A stretch of DNA of 64,000 bases from Flavobacterium magnum. GTDB taxonomy: Bacteria > Bacteroidota > Bacteroidia > Flavobacteriales > Flavobacteriaceae. The stretch spans positions 682,001-746,000 of the forward strand of contig NZ_CP028811.1 in the NCBI RefSeq assembly GCF_003055625.1, given 5' to 3'. Under the pieces are notes generated by a model. The model saw only the letters and a program-made list of their open reading frames with translations. It searched no databases and had not been told where the DNA came from. Shown here one piece after another: positions 29,052 through 43,151 of this stretch (positions are counted from its first letter, which is position 1; every line of letters starts with the position of its first letter). The position numbers were made by a program, and so were the translations under genes.

Positions 29052-29513
29052 TTATTGCTGTTCCTGCATCATTTTCTGTACGGTCTCGCTGTAATACACC
29101 TTCCCGTCGAGGATGTCCTCGAAGGCAATAAGCAATTCTTCGAAAGTCAGGTCGTTTTTCACGACGAGCCCTTCAGGCTGTATGGTTTCTGAGAAATGGC
29201 GGAATTTCAGTTTTTCGGTATGCATGGTCAGCAGGACGATCTTGCAGCCGGGCATCTTTTGGCGGAGCAGTTTGGCCAGGTCGATACCGGACTCGATTTG
29301 CTGTTCATCGTAGGCCGGGATGCTGATGTCCAGGAATGCCACGTCGTAGGTTACGGCGCTGTTGGCGATTACCTCGTATCCTGTTTGTCCGGAATCAGCC
29401 GTCGTGTCGACGATGTGGTACTCGTCGGGCTTAAACCGCTCCAGCGTATTCTTATACGCCTGGAGGATAAAAGGATGGTCATCCACCATTAAGACTTGTA
29501 CAGTTTTCTTCAT
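29052..29513 (-). CDS. Receiver-only response regulator (HTH missing)
   Basis: This 153-residue protein is a CheY-like receiver with acidic pocket Asp11-Asp12, phospho-acceptor Asp62 in VAFLDIS, Thr in VLLTMHTEK and Lys in LVVKNDL. It is homologous to the 220-residue regulator at 40620 but ends at the point where that protein continues into its HTH. No remnant of an HTH is present before thiL. It starts 15 bases after the kinase at 29529, so they are co-transcribed. It may act by protein contact, as a phosphate sink, or with another DNA-binding partner. Confidence 0.85.
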   Translation of the reverse strand: MKKTVQVLMVDDHPFILQAYKNTLERFKPDEYHIVDTTADSGQTGYEVIANSAVTYDVAFLDISIPAYDEQQIESGIDLAKLLRQKMPGCKIVLLTMHTEKLKFRHFSETIQPEGLVVKNDLTFEELLIAFEDILDGKVYYSETVQKMMQEQQ

Positions 29514-29528: not shown

Positions 29529-31559
29529 TTAATTTATACTTGAGCTTAGGGGCAATTCAAATTGTAATGTCGTACCGTCGCCGGGTTTGGTGATGATGTC
29601 CATCGTCCCTCCGGAAGCGGTGATGCGGGACCGCATATTCTGCAGGCCGATCCCGTTGCGTTTTTTGCTGTAAATGAATCCGACGCCGTCGTCTTTCACT
29701 TCCATTGCTATGAGTCCGCATTTTTTCCCGAACGTTACACTGACGTGGCGGGCATCGGCATGCTTGTTGATGTTCTGGAACGCTTCCTGCAGGATGCGGT
29801 ACAGGTTGATTTTGGCAGCGTTGGGTACCACGCCCCATTCGATGCTGTCGTCGATTAACAAGACAATAGCAGCCTGGCATACAGTACGTTGCGATTCGGT
29901 AAAATTGTTGACCATCAGCACAAAGTTATTGAAAACAGCGGTCTTTTCCGAATTTAGGTCGTGGGAAATTTCCCTAATCTCCTGCTCCAGGGTCTTGAGT
30001 TCGTCGATGTATGCGACGCGCTGCTGCGCTGCTTCTTCGTCCCTGCGGCTGTTGAGTACGCCGAGGTTCATGCGCGTGCCGAACAGTTTGCCCAGTACGC
30101 CGTCGTGCAGTTCCTGCGCAATGCGCTTCTTTTCTGCCTGCCGGGATTCCTCGACCTTATCCTGCTGGCTGATCATCAGCGAGTAGATTTCCTCATTGGC
30201 TTTTTGCTGCTCTTGGACGAGGCGGAGTTCGCGGTTTTTGGCCATCTGGATGCGGATCACAAACACAAATATGCCCGTCAGGATGATTGCGAGCGCAACG
30301 TAAATTAAGGTTTTGCGCTGTTCGACAAGCTGGACATTGTTTTGGGCAAGCTCGTCGGTTTCAAACTCGATACGGGCGAATTTGTTTTTGGTTTTGCGTT
30401 CGGCGATGTCGAGGGAGTCATTTATTTTATAATATTCTGTAGAATACGCACGCGCATTTTTTGCATCAACTTTTGAAAGTTGTTTTAGCACAGTTAAAAT
30501 AGACCTTTTCTGCTTATTTTTAGTTGCCAGAATATAAGCATCATTTGCCAGTGAAATTGACTTCAAAGTATCACCCATCACAGCATAAAATTCTGATAAA
30601 TGTTTTTTATTAGTGATGATTCCGGGAATTATGCCTAAGCTGTCCCTAATCTTAAGTGCTTTGTAAAACTGATTTGGTAAATTATCAAGTTGGCTCAACT
30701 TTAAATCTGCATATGCCAGATTGTCTAATGACATAGCAAAAATATCCGGACGGTCCTTAAACAGGTTTTTTTCTTGTAAAGCTTTTGAGAATTCTTTCTT
30801 CGCTCGTGTATAATTTTCAGCAGTGGAATACATTGCGCCAAGATTATTTACGGTGACCGCATTGTAATGTGATGCAGGAGGAGCATCCTTTCTATTCGCT
30901 ACTTCTATGGCCAGCTCATAATACTTTTTTGAAAGCGCATATTCCTGAAGGTCTGCATAGACGATTCCTAATAAGTTATTGGCTTCATATTCAATTTTAA
31001 TATTATCATATGTTTTTAAAATCCTTAGCATTTCAACAGCTGTTTTTTCACAACCTAAAAAATCTCTATATGTATGTTGTAGAACCGCTTTATTTAATAA
31101 AGTTTGCGTAAGATTGACTTTATCATTTAATTTCCTGTAAAGCTTTTCGGCTTTGTAATTATAATCATATACGCTATCCGTCTTATTTACAGTGATATAG
31201 TAATCTGACATGAATGTATATGCTTTCGCTAAGTTTATAGTATCCTTATCCTTTTCCGAGAGGCTAATTACTTCTTTCGTATATTTTTTGAAATTATCGT
31301 AATCGCCAATATTATAATAACGATTTGCTATCTTAAAATAATTCGATCTCTTGGTAGTGTCGTTTTCCTGTTTGGAAATTATAGCTAAAGCCTTTTGTAT
31401 ATAATCCCTTCTCTTTTGTATGGCAACCGTATCATTATTTGCTAAGTCTATATATGATGATAATCCGTTTTGTTTGTTATATCCTGAATCGTCTTTATTG
31501 TTCTTTTTACAAGAACAAAAAATTAGTAATGAACAAAAAACGATTAAGTTATTTTTCAA
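29529..31559 (-). CDS. TPR sensor histidine kinase (array kinase 1)
   Basis: This 676-residue protein has a lipobox-like N-terminus (Cys17 in IFCSC), a long periplasmic TPR region (about 60-385), and one membrane helix (about 418-436). A coiled segment follows, then HisKA_3 with His485 in RIAQELHDGVLG, and a HATPase domain (EAFQNINKHA, DDGVGF). It starts at TTG, with a TACATTTG -7 box 20 bases upstream. The sensor-coding part is visibly A/T-rich, the kinase part is not. Its kinase half resembles that of the gene at 34306. Downstream is the receiver-only regulator; upstream, behind a terminator, is a small peptide gene. Confidence 0.9.
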   Translation of the reverse strand: MKNNLIVFCSLLIFCSCKKNNKDDSGYNKQNGLSSYIDLANNDTVAIQKRRDYIQKALAIISKQENDTTKRSNYFKIANRYYNIGDYDNFKKYTKEVISLSEKDKDTINLAKAYTFMSDYYITVNKTDSVYDYNYKAEKLYRKLNDKVNLTQTLLNKAVLQHTYRDFLGCEKTAVEMLRILKTYDNIKIEYEANNLLGIVYADLQEYALSKKYYELAIEVANRKDAPPASHYNAVTVNNLGAMYSTAENYTRAKKEFSKALQEKNLFKDRPDIFAMSLDNLAYADLKLSQLDNLPNQFYKALKIRDSLGIIPGIITNKKHLSEFYAVMGDTLKSISLANDAYILATKNKQKRSILTVLKQLSKVDAKNARAYSTEYYKINDSLDIAERKTKNKFARIEFETDELAQNNVQLVEQRKTLIYVALAIILTGIFVFVIRIQMAKNRELRLVQEQQKANEEIYSLMISQQDKVEESRQAEKKRIAQELHDGVLGKLFGTRMNLGVLNSRRDEEAAQQRVAYIDELKTLEQEIREISHDLNSEKTAVFNNFVLMVNNFTESQRTVCQAAIVLLIDDSIEWGVVPNAAKINLYRILQEAFQNINKHADARHVSVTFGKKCGLIAMEVKDDGVGFIYSKKRNGIGLQNMRSRITASGGTMDIITKPGDGTTLQFELPLSSSIN

Positions 31560-31579: not shown

Positions 31580-31587
31580 CAAATGTA
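31580..31587 (-). promoter_or_regulatory. Promoter -7 box (TACATTTG) of array kinase 1
   Basis: This exact TAnnTTTG match on the minus strand lies between the palindromic terminator and the TTG start, 20 bases before it. Confidence 0.6.
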
Positions 31588-31604: not shown

Positions 31605-31634
31605 AAAAAGACTGTCAGCGCTGACAGTCTTTTT
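31605..31634. terminator. Perfect palindromic terminator between peptide 1 and kinase 1
   Basis: AAAAAGACTGTCAGC is followed directly by its reverse complement GCTGACAGTCTTTTT, 30 bases in all. In the minus direction it follows the peptide 1 stop and precedes the kinase promoter. Confidence 0.9.
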
Positions 31635-31655: not shown

Positions 31656-31844
31656 TTATGGTCTCTTGCCACTTCCTGTTGGTAGTCCACCATTTCCTAA
31701 CCCAGTATTGTTGTCTCCATCTCCAGTTAACTGCGCAATCAAACTGCTATTTCCTTTTTCTTTATGTTGCTCTTTACCGTTAAAAGAAGTTAAGCCAATT
31801 ACTGCTACTAAAACTAACGCTGCGATTAAGATAATTTTTTTCAT
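31656..31844 (-). CDS. Small exported peptide 1 of the kinase array
   Basis: This 62-residue protein has a lysine start and hydrophobic leader (MKKIILIAALVLVAVIGLTS) followed by FNGKE and a polar Gly/Asn-rich tail ending TGSGKRP. Peptides encoded at 34154 and 36460 share the core V-x-GLTSFNGK and a similar Gly-Thr/Ser-Lys-Lys/Arg tail. The ATG at 31844 is in the context TTTTTTTCATGA shared with the gene at 36460. It lies between kinases 2 and 1, ends at a strong palindromic terminator, and has an upstream region conserved with peptide 3. I infer a secreted or membrane-anchored signal; no database family is recalled. Confidence 0.75.
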   Translation of the reverse strand: MKKIILIAALVLVAVIGLTSFNGKEQHKEKGNSSLIAQLTGDGDNNTGLGNGGLPTGSGKRP

Positions 31845-31905
31845 GATACTTTTCAATTAGGGGTATTGGTGTTATTTTTTGTTTGTTTTATCAATTTTGA
31901 TGTGG

Positions 31906-31913
31906 TAAAACTA
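31906..31913 (-). promoter_or_regulatory. Probable -7 box (TAGTTTTA) of peptide 1
   Basis: The minus-strand sequence GTAGTTTTAC is identical at the same place upstream of peptide 3 (36680-36689). It departs from TAnnTTTG in the last base and no -33 TTG is at the right distance, suggesting an activator-dependent promoter. Confidence 0.5.
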
Positions 31914-31934
31914 CAATGCTTCGGGCGAACCGCC

Positions 31935-31963
31935 TACGTAAAAACCCCTGATATAGTAACTGG
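31935..31963 (-). promoter_or_regulatory. Conserved upstream box of peptide 1
   Basis: On the minus strand it starts CCAGTTAC, then TATATCAGG, and ends TTTTTACGTA. It matches 21 of 29 positions with 36711-36739 upstream of peptide 3, at nearly the same distance from the -7 box (20 versus 21 bases). CCAGTTAC resembles half-sites bound by LytTR regulators; that link is inference. Confidence 0.5.
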
Positions 31964-32028
31964 CTATCGTTCAATGGTAAACGACCGCCTCATGAGAGTA
32001 AATGAAGTCAGGTATTGTAAAATCTGTT

Positions 32029-34062
32029 CTACAAAACCGGTCTTGTTGGCAATAGGAATTCAAGTTTTGTCCCTTTGCCGGGTGCGGATTGGACCTTCAT
32101 CATGCCGCCAAGCTCGAGGGCCCGCTCCTGCATGTTTTTTAGGCCGAGTCCTTTACGAATTTGATTTGTATCGAAACCGATGCCGTTGTCCTCGACCACA
32201 ATACGGATCATTGTCCCCTGCTTTCCCAAGTGCACCACGACCTTGTCGGCCTGTGCGTACTTAACGATGTTTTGCAGCGCCTCCTGAAGTATACGGTACA
32301 ATTGGACTTTGGTTTCAATCAATACCGAATCCCAATCAACGAAATCCTCAGTTTCAAGATAAAAACGGATGCCTGAATGTTGCTCCAGGCCTGAAAAGAT
32401 TGTCTGGATGACCTCTGAAAAATCGGTATGGCCTGACAATGGAGAATCCAGGTTGTACGCAATGCTGCGGATTTCCTTTTCAACATCCTGTATCCTATCT
32501 ATAAATGTCAGGGCATGCTGTATCGTCTCCTGATCCTGCTTCCGGCGCAGCGCAAACAGGTTTAACCGGATGGCAGTGAGTTGCCCCATGACGCCATCGT
32601 GTAATTCGCGGGCGATACGTTTCTTTTCCAGTTGGCGGCCTTCGTCGCGCTGCTGCTGCTGGGTAATCATCAGGCGGTAGATCTCCTCATTGGCTTTCTG
32701 TTGCTCTTGGACCAGGCGGAGTTCGCGGTTCTTCGCCGCCTGAGTACGGATAACAAAAATAAAGGCACCGATCAGGATGATACCAAGGACGATATAAGTT
32801 AGGGTTTTGCGTTGTTCGACCAAGTTGGCTTTGTCGGTGGCTAGCTGGTCGGTTTCGTATTCGATACGACCTAGCTTGTTTCGAACTTGGCGTTCAGCGA
32901 GCTGTAAACTGTCTGCAATCTTAATGTATTGCTCCGAATAATCCGACTTTCTTTTAGGATCTGATAATGACATTTGTTTCAGAGACGTCAAGATGTCCTT
33001 AGGAATACGATTCTCTTTTGCAAGTAGATAAGCTTTTGTAGCAAAATCCCTGGCCTTTAAAGTGTCACTTTTTTCAAGGTAAAACTCCGACAAGTTCAGG
33101 TTGCAAGCGATGATATCTGGCGCAAATTTCAAGCTGTCTGCAATCTTTAAAGCGGCGTAATATAATTTAGGTAGCTTACTAAAATCGTTCAGCTTGAACA
33201 TAGAATAGCCAATGTTATATTTCAAATTACCAAAAAGCAGTGGATTATCTGCGTATAAATTCTCTTGCTGAAATGACTGATTGAAATACTCCAATGCTTC
33301 TTTATACTTGTGTTTCTTTTGATATAATGCTCCTAAGTTGTTTAACGTAGTGGCTTTTGCTTGCATAGAGCGCGATACATTACCAGTGCTTGCAATTTGG
33401 AGAGCCTTTTCATAGTATTCAATCGACTTACTGTACTCTGCTAGCTCATCGTAGATAATACCGAGAATATTAGTCCCTTGGTACCGTAAATCCTCATCAT
33501 TTTCTTTTTGAAGAAGTTTTAAAGCTTTAAAAACGGATTTTTCACTGCCTACAAAATCCTTTTCATTTAACTGTATTATTGCCTTATTTATTACAACTTT
33601 GGCTGTTTTTGCGTACTCTTTTTTTGCGCTGTATAGCTGTTCCGCATCAAAGTAATATGAATATGCTTTCTCAGAATGGAATTTTTTTCCAAAATAATCC
33701 CCTAGATATTCATCCGCCTTCGCAAGGCTTAATGTGTCTCTAGCCTCGTTCGCTTTTGGAATAATAAGTTCAACAGTACTTTTATAATCTTCCAACGCAT
33801 TCATGTTGAAAAATCTATTAGCAACTTTAAAATAATTAACGCGGGTGAGCGAATCGTTGTCGTTTTTAGAAATAGTTGACAGTATTTTTTCGGCGTATTG
33901 GTGCCTTTTTGAAAAAACGATTTTGTCGTCGTTTGCTAAATCAAACAGAATTTGCAAACTATCCGAATTTTCAGGAAGTTTTTTTAAATGTGCTTTTTTA
34001 TCACATCCGATTAAGGATATAAAAAAGACAGCTATAAGAGGCAATAAGTATTTACTTTTCAA
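32029..34062 (-). CDS. TPR sensor histidine kinase (array kinase 2)
   Basis: This 677-residue kinase has a lipobox (FFISLIGC), TPR sensor, one membrane helix (TLTYIVLGIILIGAFIFVI), HisKA_3 (RIARELHDGVMG) and HATPase (EALQNIVKYA, DNGIGF). Its sensor closely matches the gene at 34306, but its kinase half matches the one at 38583, so it looks like a chimera. A 53-base stretch coding for the membrane region is identical with 35033-35085. The TTG at 34062 is the start: the ATG at 34104 falls upstream of the TATTTTTG -7 box (34080-34087), in the terminator. No response regulator gene is attached. Confidence 0.9.
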   Translation of the reverse strand: MKSKYLLPLIAVFFISLIGCDKKAHLKKLPENSDSLQILFDLANDDKIVFSKRHQYAEKILSTISKNDNDSLTRVNYFKVANRFFNMNALEDYKSTVELIIPKANEARDTLSLAKADEYLGDYFGKKFHSEKAYSYYFDAEQLYSAKKEYAKTAKVVINKAIIQLNEKDFVGSEKSVFKALKLLQKENDEDLRYQGTNILGIIYDELAEYSKSIEYYEKALQIASTGNVSRSMQAKATTLNNLGALYQKKHKYKEALEYFNQSFQQENLYADNPLLFGNLKYNIGYSMFKLNDFSKLPKLYYAALKIADSLKFAPDIIACNLNLSEFYLEKSDTLKARDFATKAYLLAKENRIPKDILTSLKQMSLSDPKRKSDYSEQYIKIADSLQLAERQVRNKLGRIEYETDQLATDKANLVEQRKTLTYIVLGIILIGAFIFVIRTQAAKNRELRLVQEQQKANEEIYRLMITQQQQRDEGRQLEKKRIARELHDGVMGQLTAIRLNLFALRRKQDQETIQHALTFIDRIQDVEKEIRSIAYNLDSPLSGHTDFSEVIQTIFSGLEQHSGIRFYLETEDFVDWDSVLIETKVQLYRILQEALQNIVKYAQADKVVVHLGKQGTMIRIVVEDNGIGFDTNQIRKGLGLKNMQERALELGGMMKVQSAPGKGTKLEFLLPTRPVL

Positions 34063-34079
34063 GGTAGTAGAATTCAATC

Positions 34080-34087
34080 CAAAAATA
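34080..34087 (-). promoter_or_regulatory. Promoter -7 box (TATTTTTG) of array kinase 2
   Basis: This exact TAnnTTTG match on the minus strand, 17 bases before the TTG start, equals the box of kinase 3. Confidence 0.6.
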
Positions 34088-34104
34088 GTAAAAAGTAAAT
34101 ACAA

Positions 34105-34134
34105 AAAAAGGCTATCAAAATTGATAGCCTTTTT
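34105..34134. terminator. Palindromic terminator between peptide 2 and kinase 2
   Basis: AAAAAGGCTATCAA, AA and TTGATAGCCTTTTT form a perfect 14-base stem with a T tract, at the same place as the terminators at 31605 and 36409. Confidence 0.9.
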
Positions 34135-34153
34135 ATTATATTTTAAGATCTAT

Positions 34154-34291
34154 TTAATCTTGTTTTTTAGTGCCTCCAGCATTTTTAGCTGGTTCAATCA
34201 TTGAAGCCAATAAACTAGTGTTTTTTGATTTCTTAACTTCAGCCTTCCCATTAAAAGAAGTCAAACCTACTACGGCTACCATAACAGCCAT
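34154..34291 (-). CDS. Small peptide 2 of the kinase array, N-terminally truncated
   Basis: This 45-residue frame begins MAVMVAVVGLTSFNGK and ends NAGGTKKQD. It matches peptides 1 and 3 from the second half of their leader onward. The first part of the leader (MKKIIL...) and the whole upstream regulatory region are absent. A stop codon precedes the ATG by one codon, and the stop of kinase 3 lies only 14 bases upstream. It may be translated from the kinase 3 transcript by coupling, or it may be a dying copy. Its terminator is intact. Confidence 0.5.
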   Translation of the reverse strand: MAVMVAVVGLTSFNGKAEVKKSKNTSLLASMIEPAKNAGGTKKQD

Positions 34292-34305
34292 AGCTTACAA
34301 AAACA

Positions 34306-36366
34306 CTATAATGCCTCGCTATTTCCGTCAGCACGTCCCGCAACCGGCAATACAAAATCGAGATTCGTCCCCTCTCCCGGCATGGTCCTGACCGTCATCG
34401 TACCTCCAGACCCATTGATACGCGAATGCATGTTGAGCATGCCAATGCCTTTCTTCTTTTTGGTATAGTTAAAGCCTATGCCATCATCGGAAACCGTCAG
34501 CACAATGTTGTCTTCAACCTGCCTGAAGGTTACCGTTACCTTGGCGGCCTGCGCATGCTTGTTAACATTCTGGAAGGCCTCCTGCAGGATGCGGTACAGG
34601 TTGATCTTGGCGAGGCTGTCCACACTGGCCCAGTCAATCTGCCGGTCGATGTCGATAGTGATGGCCGCCTTACAGACAGTACGTTGCGTGGCGATGAAAT
34701 TTGTAACCATCTGGACGAAGTTATTGGCCACCGCCTGCTTTTCCGAGTTCAGGTCGTGCGAAATCTCGCGCAGTTCCTGCTCGAGTGTCTTGAGTTCGTC
34801 TATATAGGCCGTGCGTTCCGTATGGGCCTCCCTGCCGTCCCTGTCATTGAGCAGCCCGAGGTGCATGCGCGTCCCGAACAACTTGCCCAGCACCCCGTCA
34901 TGGATTTCCTGTGCGATACGTTTTTTCTCTGCCTGCCGCGTTTCCTCGACCTGCTCCTGCTGGGTAATCATCAGCCGGTAGATCTCCTCATTGGCGGCCT
35001 GCTGTTCCTGCACGAGCCGGAGTTCGCGGTTTTTCGCCGCCTGAGTACGGATAACAAAAATAAAGGCACCGATCAGGATGATACCGAGGACGATATAGGT
35101 TAGGGTCTTGCGCTGCTCGACGAGGTTGGCTTTCTCGGTTACAAGTTCGTCAGTTTCGTATTCTATACGGCCGAGTTTGTTTCGGGTTTGGCGTTCGACT
35201 AATTGAAGACTGTCATTTATTTTGATATATTCATCAGAATAAAAAGCCTCCTTTATCGGGTTTACATTTGACAATTGTTTAAGGGAGTTTAAAACATCTT
35301 TCGAATTGCTGTTTGCTTTTGCCGTAGAATATGCTTCAGAAGCAAAATTGAATGCTTTTAGAGTGTCTTTCATCTCTAGGTAATATTCCGAAAGATTTAA
35401 CTTACAAGCGATTATGCTGGGGGTGAATTTTAAACTATCTGCCAGATGCAGAGACTCATGGTAGAGTCCGGGCAAATGAGTGTAATTTTTCATCTTAAAT
35501 TCTGAGTATCCAATATTATATTTGAGGGCAGCATATAAAAGAAGATTGTCTGAATACAGATTTTTTTCCTTTAATGACAGATTGAAATATTCAAGCGCTT
35601 TCTGGTATTTCTGTTTTTTTTGATTCAATGCGCCGAGGTTATTTAAAGTTGTTGCCTTAGCCTGAATATCTGAAGAAACGTCACCTGACTTTGCAATTTT
35701 TAAAGCCTTTTCGTAATATTCGATTGATTTGTTGTACTCAGCTAACTCATCGTAAATAATACCCAAAATATTGTAACTTTGATACATTAGTTCCTCATCA
35801 CTAGTTTTCTTTAAAATCTTTAGTGCCTTAAATGCGGATTTTTCACTGCCAACAAAATCTTTCTCATTTAATTGAATAATAGCTTTGTTCAGAACCACTT
35901 TAGCGGTGCTAGAGTATTTTTCCTTTGATATATATAATTTTTCAGCCTCTAAATATGCCGAATACGCTTTTTCCGACTGAAATTTTTTTCCAAAATAATC
36001 ACCTATATACTCATGGGCTTTCGCTATGCTAAGAGTATCATTCGCCTCTATTGCTTTCGGCAAGAGAATTTCAACTGTTCTCTTATAATCTTCTAGCTTA
36101 TTCATGTTGAAAAACCTGTTTGCCACCTTAAAATAATTAACCCTATTCATCGAATCGTTTTTCTCTTTCGAAATAATTGATAAGGCTTTTTTAGCATACT
36201 GAAAACGCTTTTTAGACGGAACGGAATCGTCATTAGCAAGGTCGAAGAAAATTGCGAGACTATCTGAACGCTCGATGGTTGATATCGGATTCTCACTCTT
36301 ATTACAGCTTAAAACTGATAAGATAAAGAGAATAACGGATAGAAGTAAAAAATGTTGGTTTTTCAA
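34306..36366 (-). CDS. TPR sensor histidine kinase (array kinase 3)
   Basis: This 686-residue kinase has a lipobox (FILSVLSC), TPR sensor very like kinase 2, one membrane helix, HisKA_3 (RIAQEIHDGVLG) and HATPase (EAFQNVNKHA, DDGIGF). The kinase half matches kinase 1 (shared GKLFGTRM, IDELKTLEQE and REISHDLNSEK blocks). The TTG at 36366 is chosen: the ATG at 36423 lies inside the terminator palindrome and upstream of the -7 box at 36385-36392. A/T-rich sensor coding gives way to G/C-richer kinase coding near 35215. No response regulator directly follows; the truncated peptide 2 does. Confidence 0.9.
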   Translation of the reverse strand: MKNQHFLLLSVILFILSVLSCNKSENPISTIERSDSLAIFFDLANDDSVPSKKRFQYAKKALSIISKEKNDSMNRVNYFKVANRFFNMNKLEDYKRTVEILLPKAIEANDTLSIAKAHEYIGDYFGKKFQSEKAYSAYLEAEKLYISKEKYSSTAKVVLNKAIIQLNEKDFVGSEKSAFKALKILKKTSDEELMYQSYNILGIIYDELAEYNKSIEYYEKALKIAKSGDVSSDIQAKATTLNNLGALNQKKQKYQKALEYFNLSLKEKNLYSDNLLLYAALKYNIGYSEFKMKNYTHLPGLYHESLHLADSLKFTPSIIACKLNLSEYYLEMKDTLKAFNFASEAYSTAKANSNSKDVLNSLKQLSNVNPIKEAFYSDEYIKINDSLQLVERQTRNKLGRIEYETDELVTEKANLVEQRKTLTYIVLGIILIGAFIFVIRTQAAKNRELRLVQEQQAANEEIYRLMITQQEQVEETRQAEKKRIAQEIHDGVLGKLFGTRMHLGLLNDRDGREAHTERTAYIDELKTLEQELREISHDLNSEKQAVANNFVQMVTNFIATQRTVCKAAITIDIDRQIDWASVDSLAKINLYRILQEAFQNVNKHAQAAKVTVTFRQVEDNIVLTVSDDGIGFNYTKKKKGIGMLNMHSRINGSGGTMTVRTMPGEGTNLDFVLPVAGRADGNSEAL

Positions 36367-36384
36367 GTTAAATCGGATTCTAAT

Positions 36385-36392
36385 CAAAAATA
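36385..36392 (-). promoter_or_regulatory. Promoter -7 box (TATTTTTG) of array kinase 3
   Basis: This exact TAnnTTTG match lies 18 bases before the TTG start. The flanking ACTATTTTTG is identical upstream of kinase 2. Confidence 0.6.
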
Positions 36393-36408
36393 GTAAAATC
36401 TGAATATA

Positions 36409-36442
36409 AAAAAAGGCTGTCAAAATTTTGACAGCCTTTTTT
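36409..36442. terminator. Palindromic terminator between peptide 3 and kinase 3
   Basis: AAAAAAGGCTGTCAAAA joined to TTTTGACAGCCTTTTTT is a perfect 34-base palindrome at the peptide-to-kinase junction. Confidence 0.9.
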
Positions 36443-36459
36443 GATAAAGTATGTAAATA

Positions 36460-36624
36460 TCAGTCAGGTTTCTTTGTTCCTGTCGCAACCTTTTGCGGAT
36501 CACCTTTCAATTCGGCAAAAAGTGCTTTCCCTTTTTCGTCTTTTCTAACCTCTTTCCCATTAAAAGAAGTCAAACCAACTACTGCTACCAGGACAATTGC
36601 TACGATTAAGATAATTTTTTTCAT
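36460..36624 (-). CDS. Small exported peptide 3 of the kinase array
   Basis: This 54-residue protein has the leader MKKIILIVAIVLVAVVGLTS, then FNGKEVRKDEKGK and a tail ending TGTKKPD. It is nearly identical to peptide 1 over the first 24 residues and diverges afterwards except for the Gly-Thr/Ser-x-Lys/Arg ending. It lies between the LytTR regulator gene and kinase 3, with its own conserved upstream boxes and a palindromic terminator. Role inferred from position: a candidate ligand or accessory of kinase 3. Confidence 0.75.
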   Translation of the reverse strand: MKKIILIVAIVLVAVVGLTSFNGKEVRKDEKGKALFAELKGDPQKVATGTKKPD

Positions 36625-36680
36625 GATGTTCAATTTAGGGGATGTTATTAATTTTTTTCTGTTTGTTCAAATCGATGGTG

Positions 36681-36688
36681 TAAAACTA
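36681..36688 (-). promoter_or_regulatory. Probable -7 box (TAGTTTTA) of peptide 3
   Basis: GTAGTTTTAC on the minus strand is identical to the element upstream of peptide 1. Confidence 0.5.
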
Positions 36689-36710
36689 CGGGGATTCGTA
36701 CAAAAAGGCT

Positions 36711-36739
36711 TGCGTAGAAATACCTGAATATGTAACTGG
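36711..36739 (-). promoter_or_regulatory. Conserved upstream box of peptide 3
   Basis: On the minus strand it starts CCAGTTAC and ends TTTCTACGCA, matching 21 of 29 positions with 31935-31963. It lies between peptide 3 and the end of the LytTR regulator gene. The remaining bases of 36625-36816 hold no gene. Confidence 0.5.
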
Positions 36740-36816
36740 ATGCCTTACAGGTGTGGATGGATGGTTTTTGAGAGGATTTGACTTACAGGCATTTACCCAA
36801 AATAAGGCAAAGGGCG

Positions 36817-37581
36817 TCAATTCATGTTGTCGAGGTTCAGGTAAATCTTGCTCAGCTCCTTGTTCTCGTTGGTCGTGATCAGGTGGATCAGCATGTCGAC
36901 ATTCTTTTTATAGGATTTCGAGAACGGGATCTGCACTTTGCTGTTCTTGAGGTAACAGACGTTATTGCCCAGGTGGATCCGCGATACGTGGTTGATGTTG
37001 ATAATGTACGAATTGTGTATCCGGATGAATTCCGACGGCAGCGTGGTTTCGAAATGTTTCATCGTCTTGAATGCCGTGACCATATCGCCATTGGCCATAT
37101 AAATGTCGGTCGAGTTGTTGTCGGCCTTCGCATAGACAATGTCCTCCATGTCGATGAAGCGGTAATCGCCATACGATTTGATGCAGAGCGTCGTGGGCAG
37201 CGCCTCGGTGCCACGCTCAAACTTGATCAGCGTCTTGCGCAGCTCATGGATCCCCAGCGGCTTTACGAGGTAATCGAACGCCTCATGCTTGATCGCCTCA
37301 TAGGCCATGTCCTTGCCCTTGGTGAGCACGACGATTTTTGGCATCAGCTTTACGAACCGGAACAGCTCGTTGATGAGTCCCAGCGACAGCCCGTTCTTCT
37401 TGTATTTCGGCTTGATTTCCATCACCACGAGCTTTGGCTTGTGCTCCAGGATCAGGTTGACCCCATCCTCATAGGTCGATGCCGTCCCGAGCAGGAAGTA
37501 GTTCGAAAACTCGTCGAACAGGGACTGGGTCCTGGCCACGCTTTCGGGATCGTCGTCGATAATGATGTAGGAGTATTTCAT
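36817..37581 (-). CDS. LytTR response regulator with Glu at the phospho-acceptor position
   Basis: This 254-residue regulator has a receiver (about 1-120) and a LytTR DNA-binding domain (about 137-240; CIKSYGDYRFID, FIRIHNSYIININHV). The acidic pocket Asp9-Asp10-Asp11 and Lys in YLVKPLG are present. At the phospho-acceptor strand the sequence is LVVMEIKPK, so residue 55 is Glu where Asp is expected. It may be locked in an active-like state or respond to something other than phosphorylation. It lies directly upstream of peptide 3 in the same direction and is the only DNA-binding regulator attached to the array. Confidence 0.85.
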   Translation of the reverse strand: MKYSYIIIDDDPESVARTQSLFDEFSNYFLLGTASTYEDGVNLILEHKPKLVVMEIKPKYKKNGLSLGLINELFRFVKLMPKIVVLTKGKDMAYEAIKHEAFDYLVKPLGIHELRKTLIKFERGTEALPTTLCIKSYGDYRFIDMEDIVYAKADNNSTDIYMANGDMVTAFKTMKHFETTLPSEFIRIHNSYIININHVSRIHLGNNVCYLKNSKVQIPFSKSYKKNVDMLIHLITTNENKELSKIYLNLDNMN

Positions 37582-38559: not shown

Positions 38560-38567
38560 TATATTTG
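38560..38567 (+). promoter_or_regulatory. Promoter -7 box (TATATTTG) of kinase 4
   Basis: This exact TAnnTTTG match contains the upstream TTG (38565), which rules that codon out as the start and supports TTG at 38583, 15 bases downstream. Confidence 0.65.
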
Positions 38568-38582
38568 ACGAAATTCCATCAC

Positions 38583-40613
38583 TTGAAAAGAGTACTTCAA
38601 ATAATGTTGTTGATTTGCGTCTCATGTAATCACACGGAGAGATATCGGGCATACGGTTATAATGATGATAGTCTAAAATTATATCTCGAAAAAGCAAATA
38701 GTGAATTGTTACCATTTGACGTACGATTTAAATTTAATTCTAAAGCATTAAAAATCCTTTCTTCTAAAATCAATGATTCTTTAAATAGAAAATTTTATTT
38801 TAAAGTTGCAGCGAGGTTTTGGAATATGAATGAATTGGACTTGTATAAGCAAACATGCGAAAAAATACTTCAGTTATCTCAAAAAGCTGGTGATAGTCAA
38901 AATACGGCAAAGGCTTATAAATTCTTGGGCGACTATTATTCTAACAAATATATGGTGGAGTTAGCTTATAAAAACTACTTTAAAGCTGAAAAGCTTTATT
39001 TGGCGCTAAATGATTATGCGAATGCTGCACGGGTCACTTTAGAAAAAGGTTCATTGCAATTTAATAGTGGTGATTTCTTGGGGACAGAAAAAACCGCTTT
39101 TCAAGCGTTGAAGTATGTAAGTCCAAATTCAAATGCCTTTGTTGAATATAATTCTTACAAATTGCTAAGTATCACTTATTGTGAACTGAAAGATTTCGAC
39201 AGGGCCTTAAAATTTCAAAACTCTTCCTTTAAGTACATTAGTACATTCGCTAACCATTCCGAAGAGCGCGCCAGATGGTTGAATAATCTCGGATATATTC
39301 AACAACGTTCCAAAAAGTACAAAGAGTCCATAAAGACTTTCGAAATGGCTTCAAAATTGAGGATTTATTATGATAATCCCATACTGTATGCCACCATAAA
39401 AGAGAATCTTGCCATGTCCAGATTAAAGACAAAGAATTTCGCGAATTTACCAGCATTACTCTACGAAGCTTTAAAAATAAAGGATAGTCTTAATTATTAT
39501 CCTGGCATAATAGGGTCCAATTTAAATTTATCTGAGTATTACACCCTATCGAACGACATTCCAAAAGCAATATTTTTTGCTAACCGCGCGTATGAAATAG
39601 CCAGTACGCATAACTTAAAGCGTGAAATGTTGCCAATAATTCACCAGCTCGTCATTTTACAGCCAGGGAAAGCTACTGAATTATTGGATATGTATAGTGT
39701 AGCCGATGACAGTCTGCAGCTGGCGGATCGAAAAAACGCCAACAAATTCGCCCGCATCGAGTTCGAAACAGACAACCTCATCCAACAACAAAAACAACTC
39801 AAGGCCGAAAATGCTAAAAAAGACCAGAAACTTATGATCGTAGCAGGACTGTTCGGACTTGCCTTCCTGTTGATGATCATCACCTACCTGCTGAACCGCC
39901 AGCGACTCAGGAATCGCGAGCTCGCCATCCTCCGCCGCCAGCAGCAATCAGAAAGCGAGTTGTACGAGCTGCGACTCGCCCAGCAGCAGCAGCACGATGA
40001 AGGCCGTCAGCAGGAAAAGAAACGCATCGCACGCGAACTCCACGACGGTGTGATGGGCAAACTCTCAGCGATTCGCATGAACCTTTTTGTATTGAGCAGG
40101 AAAAACGACCCGGAAACCATCCGGAAATCCCTCGCGCACATTGACACGCTTCGCGAGGTAGAGCAGGAAATCCGGGACATCGCGTACGATCTTGGCCGAA
40201 AAGCCTTCAGTGAGGGCAATGACTTTATTCCCGTCGTACGCAACATGCTGCAAACCGCCGAAGCTGCAACAGGGATGCAAACCACCCTGATCTCAGATGA
40301 AAAAATCGACTGGCAGCGATTCTCCAACAATACTAAAATGCAACTTTACCGCATCCTCCAGGAAGCCATCCAGAATATTGTGAAATACGCCGAAGCCACA
40401 TCCATACGCGTCACGTTGAACCAGTTGGGTGACAATCTTCGTATGGAAGTGCATGATGACGGTAAGGGCTTCGAAAAGAAAAACACCAGAAAAGGCCTTG
40501 GACTCCGAAATATGAAGGAACGCGCCCGCGAGCTGCAAGGCAAACTAAAAATTGATTCCCGGCCGGACTTCGGCACTACAATAACAGTGAATTTCCCATT
40601 AACCGTTAAATAG
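38583..40613 (+). CDS. TPR sensor histidine kinase (kinase 4)
   Basis: This 676-residue kinase has a lipobox-like start (IMLLICVSC), a TPR sensor, one membrane helix (MIVAGLFGLAFLLMIITYLL), HisKA_3 (RIARELHDGVMG) and HATPase (EAIQNIVKYA, DDGKGF). The kinase half matches kinase 2; the sensor is more distant. As in kinases 1-3 the start is TTG followed by AAA, just downstream of a -7 box. Base composition changes from A/T-rich to G/C-richer near 39710, at the sensor-kinase border. It is followed after six bases by its response regulator. No peptide gene precedes it. Confidence 0.9.
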   Translation: MKRVLQIMLLICVSCNHTERYRAYGYNDDSLKLYLEKANSELLPFDVRFKFNSKALKILSSKINDSLNRKFYFKVAARFWNMNELDLYKQTCEKILQLSQKAGDSQNTAKAYKFLGDYYSNKYMVELAYKNYFKAEKLYLALNDYANAARVTLEKGSLQFNSGDFLGTEKTAFQALKYVSPNSNAFVEYNSYKLLSITYCELKDFDRALKFQNSSFKYISTFANHSEERARWLNNLGYIQQRSKKYKESIKTFEMASKLRIYYDNPILYATIKENLAMSRLKTKNFANLPALLYEALKIKDSLNYYPGIIGSNLNLSEYYTLSNDIPKAIFFANRAYEIASTHNLKREMLPIIHQLVILQPGKATELLDMYSVADDSLQLADRKNANKFARIEFETDNLIQQQKQLKAENAKKDQKLMIVAGLFGLAFLLMIITYLLNRQRLRNRELAILRRQQQSESELYELRLAQQQQHDEGRQQEKKRIARELHDGVMGKLSAIRMNLFVLSRKNDPETIRKSLAHIDTLREVEQEIRDIAYDLGRKAFSEGNDFIPVVRNMLQTAEAATGMQTTLISDEKIDWQRFSNNTKMQLYRILQEAIQNIVKYAEATSIRVTLNQLGDNLRMEVHDDGKGFEKKNTRKGLGLRNMKERARELQGKLKIDSRPDFGTTITVNFPLTVK

Positions 40614-40619
40614 CTGCGT

Positions 40620-41282
40620 ATGCTCATCCGTATTTTAATGATTGACGATCACCCTTCCCAAATCGAAGGATACAAAGTAATTCTCAGTCTCAACGATTTT
40701 GGATACGAGATTGAAACTACAGCCGTTTACAACAGCGAAAATGCCTATGCGCTCATCACCCATCCCGCACAAACAGGAAGATTTGACGTTGCATTTATCG
40801 ATTTAAGCCTGCCGCCATTTCCTGAGAAAAACATCCATTCAGGAGAGGACCTGGCGCTGCTTGTCCGCCGGCATTGGCCGAAAACCAAGATCATCATGAT
40901 CACTTCGCATGCAGAGGCATTCATTTTGTACACGCTCATCAGGAAAATTGCGCCGGAAGGGCTGATGGTCAAAAGTGATTTCAACGGCGACGGACTCCTG
41001 AAGGCCTTCGGTTTGATTGTTTCCGGAGAACAATATTACAGTGACACCGTCAATTCCGGCGTTAAGGAACTGTTATCGCGACAAAAATACCTGGACGATG
41101 TCAACCGCGAAATCATTACGCTGCTGTCACAAGGTGTCAAAATGAAAAATATGCCTGAAATCCTTGGCATATCCAAAAGCGCGATTGAAAAAAGGAAACA
41201 AATCATAAAGGACTATCTGTGTATTGAAAAAGGAGAGGATGAAGACATCATCCGGGAAGCAAAAAGACTTGGTTTTATATAA
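40620..41282 (+). CDS. Response regulator with LuxR-like HTH, partner of kinase 4
   Basis: This 220-residue regulator has acidic pocket Asp9-Asp10, phospho-acceptor Asp61 in VAFIDLSLP, and Lys in LMVKSDF. A C-terminal HTH (about 160-205) has EIITLLSQGVKMKNMPEILGISKSAIEKRK. It begins six bases after kinase 4, so the pair is a complete two-component system. It is the full-length relative of the receiver-only protein at 29052. It could serve kinases 2 and 3 too, since they lack their own regulators. Confidence 0.92.
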   Translation: MLIRILMIDDHPSQIEGYKVILSLNDFGYEIETTAVYNSENAYALITHPAQTGRFDVAFIDLSLPPFPEKNIHSGEDLALLVRRHWPKTKIIMITSHAEAFILYTLIRKIAPEGLMVKSDFNGDGLLKAFGLIVSGEQYYSDTVNSGVKELLSRQKYLDDVNREIITLLSQGVKMKNMPEILGISKSAIEKRKQIIKDYLCIEKGEDEDIIREAKRLGFI

Positions 41283-41310: not shown

Positions 41311-41405
41311 AAGTCTGATTAGAAAAGCATATAGCTTTACGATATCAAATTACTGCAGTACGTTTGACAATGTAAATTTTTATAAACTTTTAATTAATCA
41401 TTACC

Positions 41406-41882
41406 ATGAAAAAATTAATTTTATCTCTATTCGCCACATGCATGCTTACACTAACCGCCAATGCACAGACCAAATTTGTAAAAATGGAGCTGCCATCGTT
41501 CAGACAGAGTCCGGCAGGTTCCTCAGAAACAATCATTTATGACGTGTCTTTTAAAACCAAAGACGGTAAAACCGAGAAGGGTCAAATGAAATTTGTAGTG
41601 CCTGACGAAGGCAACGGCTTAATCAGTCTGGAGTTTTCAGACAATATGATCAGAAACACGACGGTTACCACAAATTATTTTGTTGTCAACGCAAATAAAC
41701 TCAGCGATGACACCGCCGAAGGGAAAAGCCTTTCGGATTGCTTAACCGAATGCAAAAAGACCTTTACCAACCCAGACGGCACAAAAATTAAGGGACGGGG
41801 AAAGTGTAAAGCTGATTGCTGGTTTAATGCAAGTGAAAAAATACTTCCTGCAATTATCACATTGATTCAAATATTAGGCTAA
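41406..41882 (+). CDS. Exported protein with CX3C-CX3C motif
   Basis: This 158-residue protein has a signal peptide ending ANAQ. A beta-rich middle (ETIIYDVSFKTKDGKTEKGQMKFVV) follows. The C-terminal third carries four cysteines, DCLTECKK and KCKADCW, separated by 17 residues. This CX3C...CX3C arrangement is that of helical hairpins closed by two disulfides. It ends with a hydrophobic helix (ILPAIITLIQILG). I do not recognise the family. It follows the kinase 4/regulator operon and shares the upstream repeat with it, so it may be a regulated target. Confidence 0.65.
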   Translation: MKKLILSLFATCMLTLTANAQTKFVKMELPSFRQSPAGSSETIIYDVSFKTKDGKTEKGQMKFVVPDEGNGLISLEFSDNMIRNTTVTTNYFVVNANKLSDDTAEGKSLSDCLTECKKTFTNPDGTKIKGRGKCKADCWFNASEKILPAIITLIQILG

Positions 41883-41935: not shown

Positions 41936-42673
41936 ATGAGAAAAATAACACTGTCCATGCTAATTATTTCCGTGTTAACATCATGTGGGAAGATGGCGAC
42001 AAAGTTTATGGTAAATAACTACAATGGAACCTTCATGGTTTGGCATTATACAAATGGAATTAAGGATGTTCAATTTATTCCGATGTCTCATATTAATAAA
42101 TCCGAAAAGTTTGATAGAATCAAACAAATTACTGACTCACTCAGAGAAAATGGATACGTAGTTTATTATGAAAACGTAAAGCTCAAAAATTCCGAAGACT
42201 TCGCGCATAATGACACTGTAAGTCGAAAATTCCGAAAGATTGTCGGAATAGTGCCCGGTGATTATTCGGATAAAACACAGGATGCCTATAAAAATCTTGC
42301 GTTAAAAGGTTATGTAATGCAGACTGCAACAAACACCGGTATTGACAGCAAAAGAGATATTCAGGCCGACTTATCTGTCGATACGCTCGTTTCCATGTAT
42401 GAGAAACAACGCGGAAGAATAGTGCTAGAAGGTTGCGATTGGTCAACTTCGTTTTCAGATAGATACAATTGCCACAAGTTAAATATCAGCGATCAACAAT
42501 TTATGGTGGTTACGTTGAGGAACCGCCATCTAGCTAACTTTGTTACGCGTTCTAAACATAAAAAAATTGCTATTATGTATGGTGCAGAACATCAGAAAAA
42601 TTTCGAAAACGATTTGAAGAAATTTGATGCAAATTGGCACTTCGTTCACAATAACCCATTGATAAGGTGGTAG
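41936..42673 (+). CDS. TraB/GumN-like lipoprotein, copy 1
   Basis: This 245-residue lipoprotein has lipobox Cys in ISVLTSCGK. The layout hints at the TraB/GumN (TIKI-like) superfamily: an early PMSHI histidine, a YVVYYENV strand with Glu, and a late IMYGAEHQKNF with the GxxH pattern. The first motif lacks the usual Gly, so the assignment is tentative. It ends in IRW like its paralogue at 43218, with which it shares the DVQF-P-M-x-H and KFR-x-I-x-G-x-VP blocks. Coding is A/T-rich, unlike the paralogue. Confidence 0.6.
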   Translation: MRKITLSMLIISVLTSCGKMATKFMVNNYNGTFMVWHYTNGIKDVQFIPMSHINKSEKFDRIKQITDSLRENGYVVYYENVKLKNSEDFAHNDTVSRKFRKIVGIVPGDYSDKTQDAYKNLALKGYVMQTATNTGIDSKRDIQADLSVDTLVSMYEKQRGRIVLEGCDWSTSFSDRYNCHKLNISDQQFMVVTLRNRHLANFVTRSKHKKIAIMYGAEHQKNFENDLKKFDANWHFVHNNPLIRW

Positions 42674-42752: not shown

Positions 42753-43151
42753 ATGAAAACCCTTTTTTGCCTTTTGATAATCATATTTCCTTCCTTCTCC
42801 TATCCCCAATCCGACCTCGACAAAACCCTCAAAGCCGGGGAGTTATTACTCGGGGGCCTCAGCATCCTGAAAGTCGCGAAGACGGACCCTAAGAAAGACA
42901 GCAGGACCATCGAAAGTGTCTGCGTCAAAAACAAGCTGGCCGAGAAGATCACCTTCCGGCTCGAAGGGAAAGACAGCCAGGACAACGACATCAAAAAAGA
43001 GATGGTCGTCCAGAACGACGGCAAGGAATGCGTGTTCAACCTGCCTAAAGGAATCTACACTTACGAAGTCGTACTCGCCAGCAAGGATATCTATAAAAGG
43101 GGCGAATACAAATTCGAAGACGATGTGATCATTACAATAAAGAAGGAGTGA
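42753..43151 (+). CDS. Small exported protein
   Basis: This 132-residue protein has a signal peptide (LFCLLIIIFPSFSYPQ). A short helix (LDKTLKAGELLLGGLSILKV) and a beta-sandwich-like domain follow, with RLEGKDSQDNDIKKEMVVQNDGKE and GIYTYEVVLASKD. I do not recognise it. It sits between the two TraB-like copies and ends at a strong terminator. Confidence 0.6.
   Translation: MKTLFCLLIIIFPSFSYPQSDLDKTLKAGELLLGGLSILKVAKTDPKKDSRTIESVCVKNKLAEKITFRLEGKDSQDNDIKKEMVVQNDGKECVFNLPKGIYTYEVVLASKDIYKRGEYKFEDDVIITIKKE

What the first reader, a model, noticed from the sequence alone, without database searches (positions are those of the whole stretch)
31656..37581. Array of small secreted peptides each paired with a TPR histidine kinase
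Three times on the minus strand the order is: tiny gene with a shared leader and VGLTSFNGK core, palindromic terminator, separate -7 box, TTG-started TPR histidine kinase (peptides at 31656, 34154, 36460; kinases at 29529, 32029, 34306). The peptides share a leader and a Lys/Arg-rich end but differ in between, while the sensors are periplasmic TPR domains, which elsewhere bind peptides. This layout suggests a peptide-sensing system, perhaps for quorum or envelope sensing, that I do not recognise as described.
Basis: partly seen in the sequence, partly recalled or inferred. Interest (0 to 1): 0.85.

Follow-up and report, generated by a model that had tools for sequence, protein, structure and literature searches.

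The report
Secreted peptides paired with receptor kinases
Flavobacteria carry, directly in front of one family of membrane sensor kinases, a small exported protein whose tail (often repeated several times, like yeast mating pheromone) changes in step with the sensor's binding domain, which looks like a peptide-based signalling system in a group of bacteria where I found none described.

Summary
The layout is real: two intact small exported-peptide genes (pep1, pep3) and one 5'-truncated one (pep2) each precede a TPR histidine kinase, with a terminator and TAnnTTTG box between. Relatives strengthen it. Of 80 named-record loci of the orthologous kinase, all 77 with upstream sequence carry a small exported-precursor gene directly before it (control ORFs 6 of 438). 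Exact tail repeats of 12 aa or more occur in 55 of 76 precursors; differences between copies are mostly synonymous (pN/pS 0.074). One genome has six tandem peptide genes with an identical C-terminal decapeptide (55 synonymous, 0 nonsynonymous differences summed over pairs). In 38 independent pairs, tail divergence tracks the TPR domain given the kinase domain (partial rho 0.64, 0 of 5000 permutations); leader divergence does not. Covarying columns favour TPR ligand positions (p 0.007). AlphaFold gives a confident TPR superhelix. In a 296-genome phylum draw the kinase was seen only in Flavobacteriaceae. Best reading: a peptide-pheromone system with a TPR-ectodomain receptor kinase, fitting no known class tested; ten paper searches found no description. 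Translation, export, processing, binding, output and cell-to-cell action are inferred.

The parts
36817..37581 (-). LytTR-type response regulator upstream of pep3; its receiver has Glu where the phospho-acceptor Asp is expected (by my reading of the alignment)
   Evidence: Pfam Response_reg + LytTR; a LytTR homologue upstream in 77 of 77 named loci with upstream sequence; Glu in 99% of 78 aligned
36674..36688 (-). promoter element TAGTTTTACACCATC, starting 64 bp before pep3 ATG
   Evidence: one of only two exact TAGTTTTACNNNATC matches in the whole 3.46 Mb genome
36460..36624 (-). pep3, exported peptide precursor, 54 aa, tail ..QKVATGTKKPD
   Evidence: against G236 orthologue pS 0.76 pN 0.12
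36405..36446 (.). terminator palindrome after pep3
36385..36392 (-). TATTTTTG (-7 box) of K3
34306..36423 (-). K3, lipobox-like Cys + TPR ectodomain + one TM + HisKA_3/HATPase kinase (likely start TTG at 36366)
   Evidence: Pfam; alignment; ectodomain AlphaFold2 pLDDT 90.6
34154..34291 (-). pep2, 5'-truncated peptide gene (leader start and promoter lost), tail ..AKNAGGTKKQD
   Evidence: no peptide at the same place in G236
34105..34134 (.). terminator palindrome after pep2
34080..34087 (-). TATTTTTG (-7 box) of K2
32029..34104 (-). K2, TPR histidine kinase (likely start TTG at 34062)
   Evidence: Pfam
31899..31913 (-). promoter element TAGTTTTACCACATC, starting 69 bp before pep1 ATG
31656..31844 (-). 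pep1, exported peptide precursor, 62 aa, tail ..GLGNGGLPTGSGKRP
   Evidence: against G236 orthologue pS 0.71 pN 0.12
31605..31634 (.). terminator palindrome after pep1
31580..31587 (-). TACATTTG (-7 box) of K1
29529..31559 (-). K1, TPR histidine kinase (start TTG)
   Evidence: Pfam
29052..29513 (-). RR1, receiver-only response regulator (153 aa; C-terminal part present in most relatives is missing, as in its close relatives)
   Evidence: Pfam Response_reg; 153-156 aa in the 7 window-type loci where the gene is visible and 154 aa in G001; 222-263 aa in 80 of 80 named loci

Best explanation
The small genes encode exported precursors of a peptide signal. The N-terminal leader sends the precursor out of the cytoplasm. 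The C-terminal 10-16 residues (one copy in the window; 2-6 tandem copies, or several tandem genes with the same ending, in relatives) are the signal, released by an unknown protease. The signal binds the concave face of the periplasmic TPR domain of the single-TM histidine kinase encoded next to it. The kinase then phosphorylates the downstream response regulator. The peptide gene has its own promoter and terminator, so it can be made in excess over the kinase. In the window and most Flavobacterium a LytTR regulator with Glu at the phosphosite sits just upstream and may drive the peptide promoter. Tail and receptor diverge together between species, as expected for species-specific pheromones. 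In the window the module was triplicated into separate peptide-kinase pairs that feed one receiver-only regulator, and pair 2 is losing its peptide. Shown by computation: gene order, repeats, selection, tail-TPR co-variation, TPR model, shared promoter element. Inferred: translation, export route, cleavage, binding, phosphotransfer, cell-to-cell action, LytTR's target.
For: Pairing: 77 of 77 named loci (6 of 438 control ORFs), 103 of 105 more loci; in the window's genome 0 of 6 other TPR-region kinases (K4 and L024-L028; L028's TPR match is below Pfam's cut-off). Signal unit: exact repeats of 12 aa or more in 55 of 76 precursors, longest in shuffles 6; all 46 DNA repeat periods are multiples of 3 and pN/pS between copies is 0.074; six tandem genes ending TDPIIIPKKD, 55 synonymous and 0 nonsynonymous differences summed over 15 pairs, against pN 0.11-0.16 elsewhere in the gene. 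Receptor match: partial Mantel unit~TPR given HK 0.37 (0 of 2000), leader~TPR given HK 0.035 (497 of 2000); 38 independent pairs, partial rho 0.64 (0 of 5000), leader -0.015; ligand positions of TPR helix A enriched, p 0.007. Fold: pLDDT 90.6, pTM 0.83; profile matches to peptide-binding TPRs including NprR 4gpk. Regulation: two exact promoter elements in the genome, both at peptide genes.
Against: No expression, peptide, binding or phenotype data. No signal-peptidase site or maturation protease was identified; 42 of 103 wider-set leaders match a lipobox pattern, so some precursors may stay membrane-bound. 20 of 76 named precursors lack an exact repeat of 8 aa or more, and window tails are single-copy. 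LytTR is not universal: found in 8 of the 15 loci, one of the other 7 (L246) being cut by its contig end. The promoter element was defined after seeing the sequences and is absent from L244, L245, L246, L248 and the second peptide gene of L240; one-mismatch hits are at chance level. A strict direct-repeat operator pattern matched 0 of 80. unit~HK given TPR was weakly positive in the Mantel test (0.13, 4 of 2000), and kinase segment 601-674 alone gave 0.17. The ectodomain's share of the top 40 columns (34) only modestly exceeds its share of variable columns (287 of 404). Two testable kinases lack a peptide (L197, L218), and one non-TPR kinase of the own genome has a small membrane ORF upstream by the same filter (L031). 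Passage through the outer membrane is unexplained.
Confidence: 0.78

Rival explanations
1. Autocrine envelope sensor: the exported tail is a ligand of the kinase of the same cell and reports on export, processing or protease activity, not on neighbours.
For: Precursor and receptor both sit at the envelope; lipobox-like leaders in 42 of 103 wider-set precursors would keep the peptide on the cell; no export gene is part of the conserved four-gene core as far as looked at.
Against: An export reporter need not change with the receptor in every species, yet 68 of 77 tails are distinct and tail distance tracks TPR distance. Multi-copy tails within one precursor suit a released ligand.
Confidence: 0.13
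2. The small protein is a non-cleaved accessory or inhibitory subunit of the kinase (CpxP-like), held at the sensor.
For: Strict adjacency and co-variation with the TPR domain fit any dedicated protein partner.
Against: Short units in tandem with little nonsynonymous change between copies, and identical C-terminal decapeptides in six otherwise varying genes, point to short independent ligand units.
Confidence: 0.06
3. The tail is a secreted antimicrobial or other effector peptide and the kinase senses it for autoinduction or self-protection.
For: Secreted-protein genes beside K4/RR4 share the promoter element; such links are common in bacteriocin systems (general knowledge).
Against: Immunity or modification genes were not seen as conserved neighbours, though neighbours were not annotated systematically; an ABC-ATPase-like ORF is in the stored flank of only 5 of 80 named loci. 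Tails are short and vary in step with the receptor.
Confidence: 0.03

Closest known systems
RRNPPA (Rap, Rgg, NprR, PlcR, PrgX, AimR) peptide systems of Firmicutes
   Same: TPR receptor encoded next to a small exported precursor; C-terminal signal; multi-copy mature peptides in one precursor are common for AimR, NprR, Rap and PlcR (PMC9765709, passages); the ectodomain profile matches NprR.
   Different: RRNPPA receptors are intracellular and 250-500 aa long (PMC10075063, passages) and the peptide is reinternalised (PMC9765709, passages); here the TPR is the ectodomain of a ~680 aa membrane histidine kinase in Gram-negative Flavobacteriaceae.
Agr / ComD-ComE / ComP-type peptide two-component systems of Gram-positives
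   Same: Secreted peptide sensed by a membrane histidine kinase; a LytTR regulator is often present.
   Different: No polytopic sensor; HisKA_3 kinase with a NarL-like regulator; the LytTR regulator has Glu at the expected phosphosite; no exporter or modification gene recognised in the conserved core. Features of the known systems are recalled, apart from PMC8895600 passages.
Yeast alpha-factor precursor (works like)
   Same: Exported precursor with tandem identical peptide copies.
   Different: Unrelated organism and receptor; no known protease site here. Recalled, not tested.
Porphyromonas FimS sensor kinase
   Same: Sensor kinase of Bacteroidota whose NCBIfam model matches the TPR region of K1 and K3 weakly.
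   Different: Scores 38.8 and 46.6 against a cut-off of 600; no precursor peptide known to me.

Membership tests
RRNPPA | TPR repeats form the receptor's ligand domain | tested here: met
   Pfam TPR; AlphaFold2 all-helical TPR superhelix; NprR profile match 4gpk E 1.9e-5. That it binds the peptide is inferred.
RRNPPA | precursor gene directly adjacent to receptor gene | tested here: met
   77 of 77, 103 of 105
RRNPPA | intracellular receptor of 250-500 aa, no kinase | tested here: not met
   HisKA_3 and HATPase_c, 676-705 aa; lipobox-like Cys and one TM segment (reading)
RRNPPA | peptide re-imported into the cytoplasm | not testable with these tools
   ectodomain topology argues against it
Agr/Com peptide two-component systems | polytopic membrane sensor domain (recalled) | tested here: not met
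   TPR ectodomain and a single TM segment
Agr/Com peptide two-component systems | dedicated peptide exporter or modification enzyme in the locus | tested here: inconclusive
   conserved core is LytTR, peptide, kinase, RR; an ABC-ATPase-like ORF (Pfam ABC_tran for L242) lies in the flank of 5 of 80 named loci and of L241, L242, L245, L247, L248 by its start sequence; other neighbours were not annotated systematically
Agr/Com peptide two-component systems | secreted peptide activates the adjacent kinase | not testable with these tools
   needs a peptide bioassay
Any named Pfam/NCBIfam precursor family | curated match above cut-off | tested here: not met
   no match above cut-off for 3 window peptides in Pfam and 2 in NCBIfam, nor for 3 repeat precursors in either

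The most novel reading that the evidence does not exclude
A previously undescribed class of peptide quorum sensing, nearly universal in Flavobacterium and widespread in Flavobacteriaceae: exported, often multi-copy pheromone precursors paired with co-evolving TPR-ectodomain receptor kinases. It would be a peptide cell-to-cell language of Gram-negative Bacteroidota, with species-specific pherotypes, gene-triplicated private channels (the window), and secreted-protein genes at a sister kinase (K4/RR4) sharing the pheromone promoter element.
Probability: 0.6. Interest if true: 0.95.

Novelty: new variant of a known kind. Interest (0 to 1): 0.9.

Why it matters
[quoted passage not shown] If right, probably hundreds of species carry an addressable peptide language (the kinase is in 344 of 398 sampled genus genomes, and 162 of 299 family genomes). 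The likely ligands can be read from the genome, synthesised and tested at once, and specificity can be studied with a ready-made set of 68 distinct tails and 77 receptors.

Tried and rejected
Peptide-only search over the genus gave 63 of 398 genomes at E <= 0.01. Hits weaker than 5e-5 mostly lie in open frames over 100 aa and were set aside as membrane-start coincidences; a few in short frames (for example in G213, G137, G198) were not followed up. That leaves 11 of 398 genomes with the window-type peptide. All 11 have the kinase just downstream, by coordinates or, in G384, as a 206-residue N-terminal match cut by the contig end. The first upstream filter missed L170, which does carry the gene; a wider filter found 77 of 77. 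The first within-gene selection estimate (317 synonymous, 14 nonsynonymous, ratio 0.014, 27 genes) chose sites by amino-acid periodicity and is biased; the DNA-chosen estimate (0.074, 46 genes) is the one to use. A LytTR-like direct repeat in the promoters was proposed from reading and not supported (strict pattern 0 of 80; a looser count had no control). One-mismatch promoter-element hits in the genome are at chance level (27 against 27 for the reversed control). Top covarying column K273 is an insertion site that may mark one clade; the helix-position test does not use it. TPR ligand positions 2, 5, 6, 9, 12, 13 are recalled; the register was set by hand and agrees with the AlphaFold helices. 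A comparison of folds could not be run.

For the co-variation tests the unit was the last 14 residues, with one trailing E or N trimmed after the final D and two precursors (L134, L154) trimmed by hand; all 77 loci were used. One search used FastTree on HK plus RR alignments; 38 pairs from 77 tips leave one tip out. One search covered 47 genomes that I picked, 42 for weak kinase similarity and 5 for peptide hits; its 30 loci were read.

Papers: ten searches gave listings; passages were read in PMC10352776, PMC6801697, PMC10075063, PMC9765709, PMC13220807 and PMC8895600. None of what I saw describes this system. The library is open-access PMC only, no preprints.
Full report
What is in the window. 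On the minus strand the order is LytTR regulator (36817-37581), pep3, K3, pep2, K2, pep1, K1, RR1 (29052-29513). pep1 (62 aa) and pep3 (54 aa) start MKKIILI.A.VLVAV.GLTSFNGK and end in different Lys/Arg-rich tails. pep2 has the core and a tail but has lost its first codons and its promoter: its first start codon is 14 bp past the K3 stop. After each peptide comes a terminator palindrome, then one TAnnTTTG box, then a kinase with a TTG start. K1-K3 carry TPRs, HisKA_3 and HATPase_c; an 11-sequence alignment shows an invariant Cys near the N-terminus, lipobox-like, and a hydrophobic segment between TPRs and kinase (my reading).

The pairing is general. The window-type peptide is found in 11 of 398 genomes of the genus (E < 1e-6), but a kinase match at E <= 1e-60 is in 344 of 398. 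Reading upstream of 29 of those kinases showed another form of the same gene: MKKAILTIGLFSLVMILTSFTTPE... followed by tandem copies such as (AAGSGSTGGNVRLD)x5 or (LVGGSSVGGNRKVD)x4. A scan of named genomes with an 11-kinase alignment kept the best 80 of 415 relatives, all Flavobacterium or Flavobacteriaceae/Bacteroidetes assemblies. Three lack upstream sequence. The other 77 all have a 45-125 aa signal-sequence-like ORF directly upstream on the same strand, against 6 of 438 other ORFs of at least 200 aa in the same loci. A LytTR homologue lies upstream in 77 of 77 (in L112 it is farther away and 39% identical) and a response regulator just downstream in 80 of 80. Between peptide and kinase a terminator-like hairpin occurs in 73 of 76 (3 of 76 shuffled) and TAnnTTTG in 76 of 76 (12.4 expected). 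Of 111 further kinase loci (more Flavobacterium, including divergent ones, and other genera; some are the same species as named loci), 6 could not be tested and 103 of the other 105 have such an ORF under a slightly looser filter. In the window's own genome nine other kinase hits were checked: the six with a TPR region (K4, L024-L027, and L028 below Pfam's cut-off) have none, two without TPR have none, and one without TPR (L031) has a small membrane ORF.

Distribution. In a family draw the kinase is in 162 of 299 genomes, 137 of 236 genera, at E <= 1e-90. In a phylum draw of 296 genomes the 29 with a match at E <= 1e-70 all belong to the window's family. So the system looks Flavobacteriaceae-specific at this sensitivity.

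The tail is the selected unit. Exact non-overlapping repeats of at least 12 aa occur in 55 of 76 precursors; 20 shuffles of each never exceeded 6. At DNA level 46 of 76 genes pass a repeat criterion that ignores reading frame; all 46 periods are multiples of three, and between copies there are 483 synonymous and 111 nonsynonymous differences (pS 0.331, pN 0.0245; codon positions 85/42/467). Old copies that keep the same peptide suggest that each copy must match the same target. A second route to the same end appears in G084 (L249): six consecutive 57-aa genes whose last ten residues TDPIIIPKKD show 55 synonymous and no nonsynonymous differences summed over 15 pairs, while leader and middle vary (pN 0.159 and 0.113). 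Repeats also occur in other genera: L221, L224, L271.

Tail and receptor change together. Among 77 loci there are 68 distinct 14-aa tails. The partial Mantel correlation of tail with TPR distance, given the kinase domain, is 0.37 (0 of 2000 permutations reach it); for the leader of the same gene it is 0.035 (497 of 2000). Tail with kinase domain given TPR is 0.13 (4 of 2000), and kinase segment 601-674 alone gives 0.17, so the signal is strong but not perfectly confined to the ectodomain. With 38 phylogenetically independent pairs the partial rank correlation is 0.64 (0 of 5000); tail with kinase domain given TPR is -0.13, leader with TPR -0.015. Of the 40 columns most associated with tail distance 34 are in the ectodomain, a modest excess over its 287 of 404 variable columns. 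Within TPRs 1-7, the positions that line the concave face (2, 5, 6, 9, 12, 13; recalled) average 0.098 against 0.040 elsewhere (28 and 136 columns, permutation p 0.007); best among them are E205, T237 and S117 of L101. AlphaFold2 models the K3 ectodomain with mean pLDDT 90.6 and pTM 0.83 as paired helices in the expected register. A profile search of solved structures returns peptide-binding TPR proteins such as kinesin light chain, LGN and NprR, along with designed and other TPR proteins.

Regulation. The element TAGTTTTACNNNATC has two exact matches in the 3.46 Mb genome, starting 69 and 64 bp before pep1 and pep3. In 12 sources a relaxed form, written after seeing the sequences, has 15 matches: 10 before peptide genes, 4 before secreted-protein genes linked to the sister kinase K4/RR4 (window 41332 and three in G001, one of these before a copy with a stop in its leader), 1 elsewhere; it is absent from L244, L245, L246, L248 and the second peptide gene of L240. 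The LytTR regulator has Glu instead of the expected phospho-Asp in 99% of 78 sequences, while the RR keeps its Asp in all 82. I infer that LytTR, where present, acts without phosphorylation and that the kinase signals through the RR. LytTR was found in 8 of the 15 loci; L246 is cut by its contig end and the other six (L242, L243, L249, L250, L252, L253) show none. In the window's subclade the RR is receiver-only (153-156 aa), so it probably acts through another protein.

Evolution in the window. G001, G082, G100, G352 and G154 have one peptide-kinase pair, G307 two, and G236 and the window three kinases. The pair-2 peptide is gone in G236 and truncated in the window. pep1 and pep3 have similar leaders and diverged tails, as in private channels made by duplication.

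Mechanism, known and novel. The data fit an exported precursor, a 10-16 residue C-terminal signal, and a periplasmic TPR receptor kinase. It works like Gram-positive peptide signalling but fails defining features of both the RRNPPA receptors (intracellular, no kinase) and the Agr/Com sensors (polytopic); whether an exporter belongs to it is open. Multi-copy precursors are known for some RRNPPA systems (PMC9765709, passages). Ten paper searches found no description of this system, and a 2026 quorum-sensing review contains no word beginning with bacteroid, flavobacter or tetratricopeptide (PMC13220807). Not shown: translation, export route, cleavage, binding, crossing of the outer membrane, output genes, and whether it acts between cells.

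Noticed in passing
window 38565-41282 (+): Fourth TPR kinase K4 with its own 220-aa response regulator RR4 and no peptide gene upstream; followed by signal-sequence-bearing ORFs (41406-41882, 41936-42673, 42753-43151), the first with a one-mismatch copy of the peptide promoter element at 41332-41346.
   Followed up: partly
L032 12590-16021: In G001 the RR4-type gene is followed by a tandem array in which its 3' end is duplicated behind short signal-sequence ORFs (..KGTDEEIVKEAKRMGFI), each unit with a Cys-containing secreted protein and the TAGTTTTACGATATC element; the third copy has a stop in its leader.
   Followed up: partly
L249 9048-10490: Seven consecutive small peptide genes before one TPR kinase, six ending TDPIIIPKKD and the seventh NPILIIKND.
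   Followed up: yes
window 36817-37581 and its orthologues in L099-L178: LytTR response regulator with a conserved Glu at the expected phosphorylation site, upstream of the peptide gene.
   Followed up: partly
window 29052-29513: Receiver-only response regulator that seems to serve three kinases; the C-terminal part present in the 80 named loci is absent in the window's subclade.
   Followed up: partly
L242 8285-11681: In G100 a run of related secreted proteins (several starting MKNLFKLL..) stands upstream of the peptide gene and no LytTR regulator is seen in the stretch.
   Followed up: no
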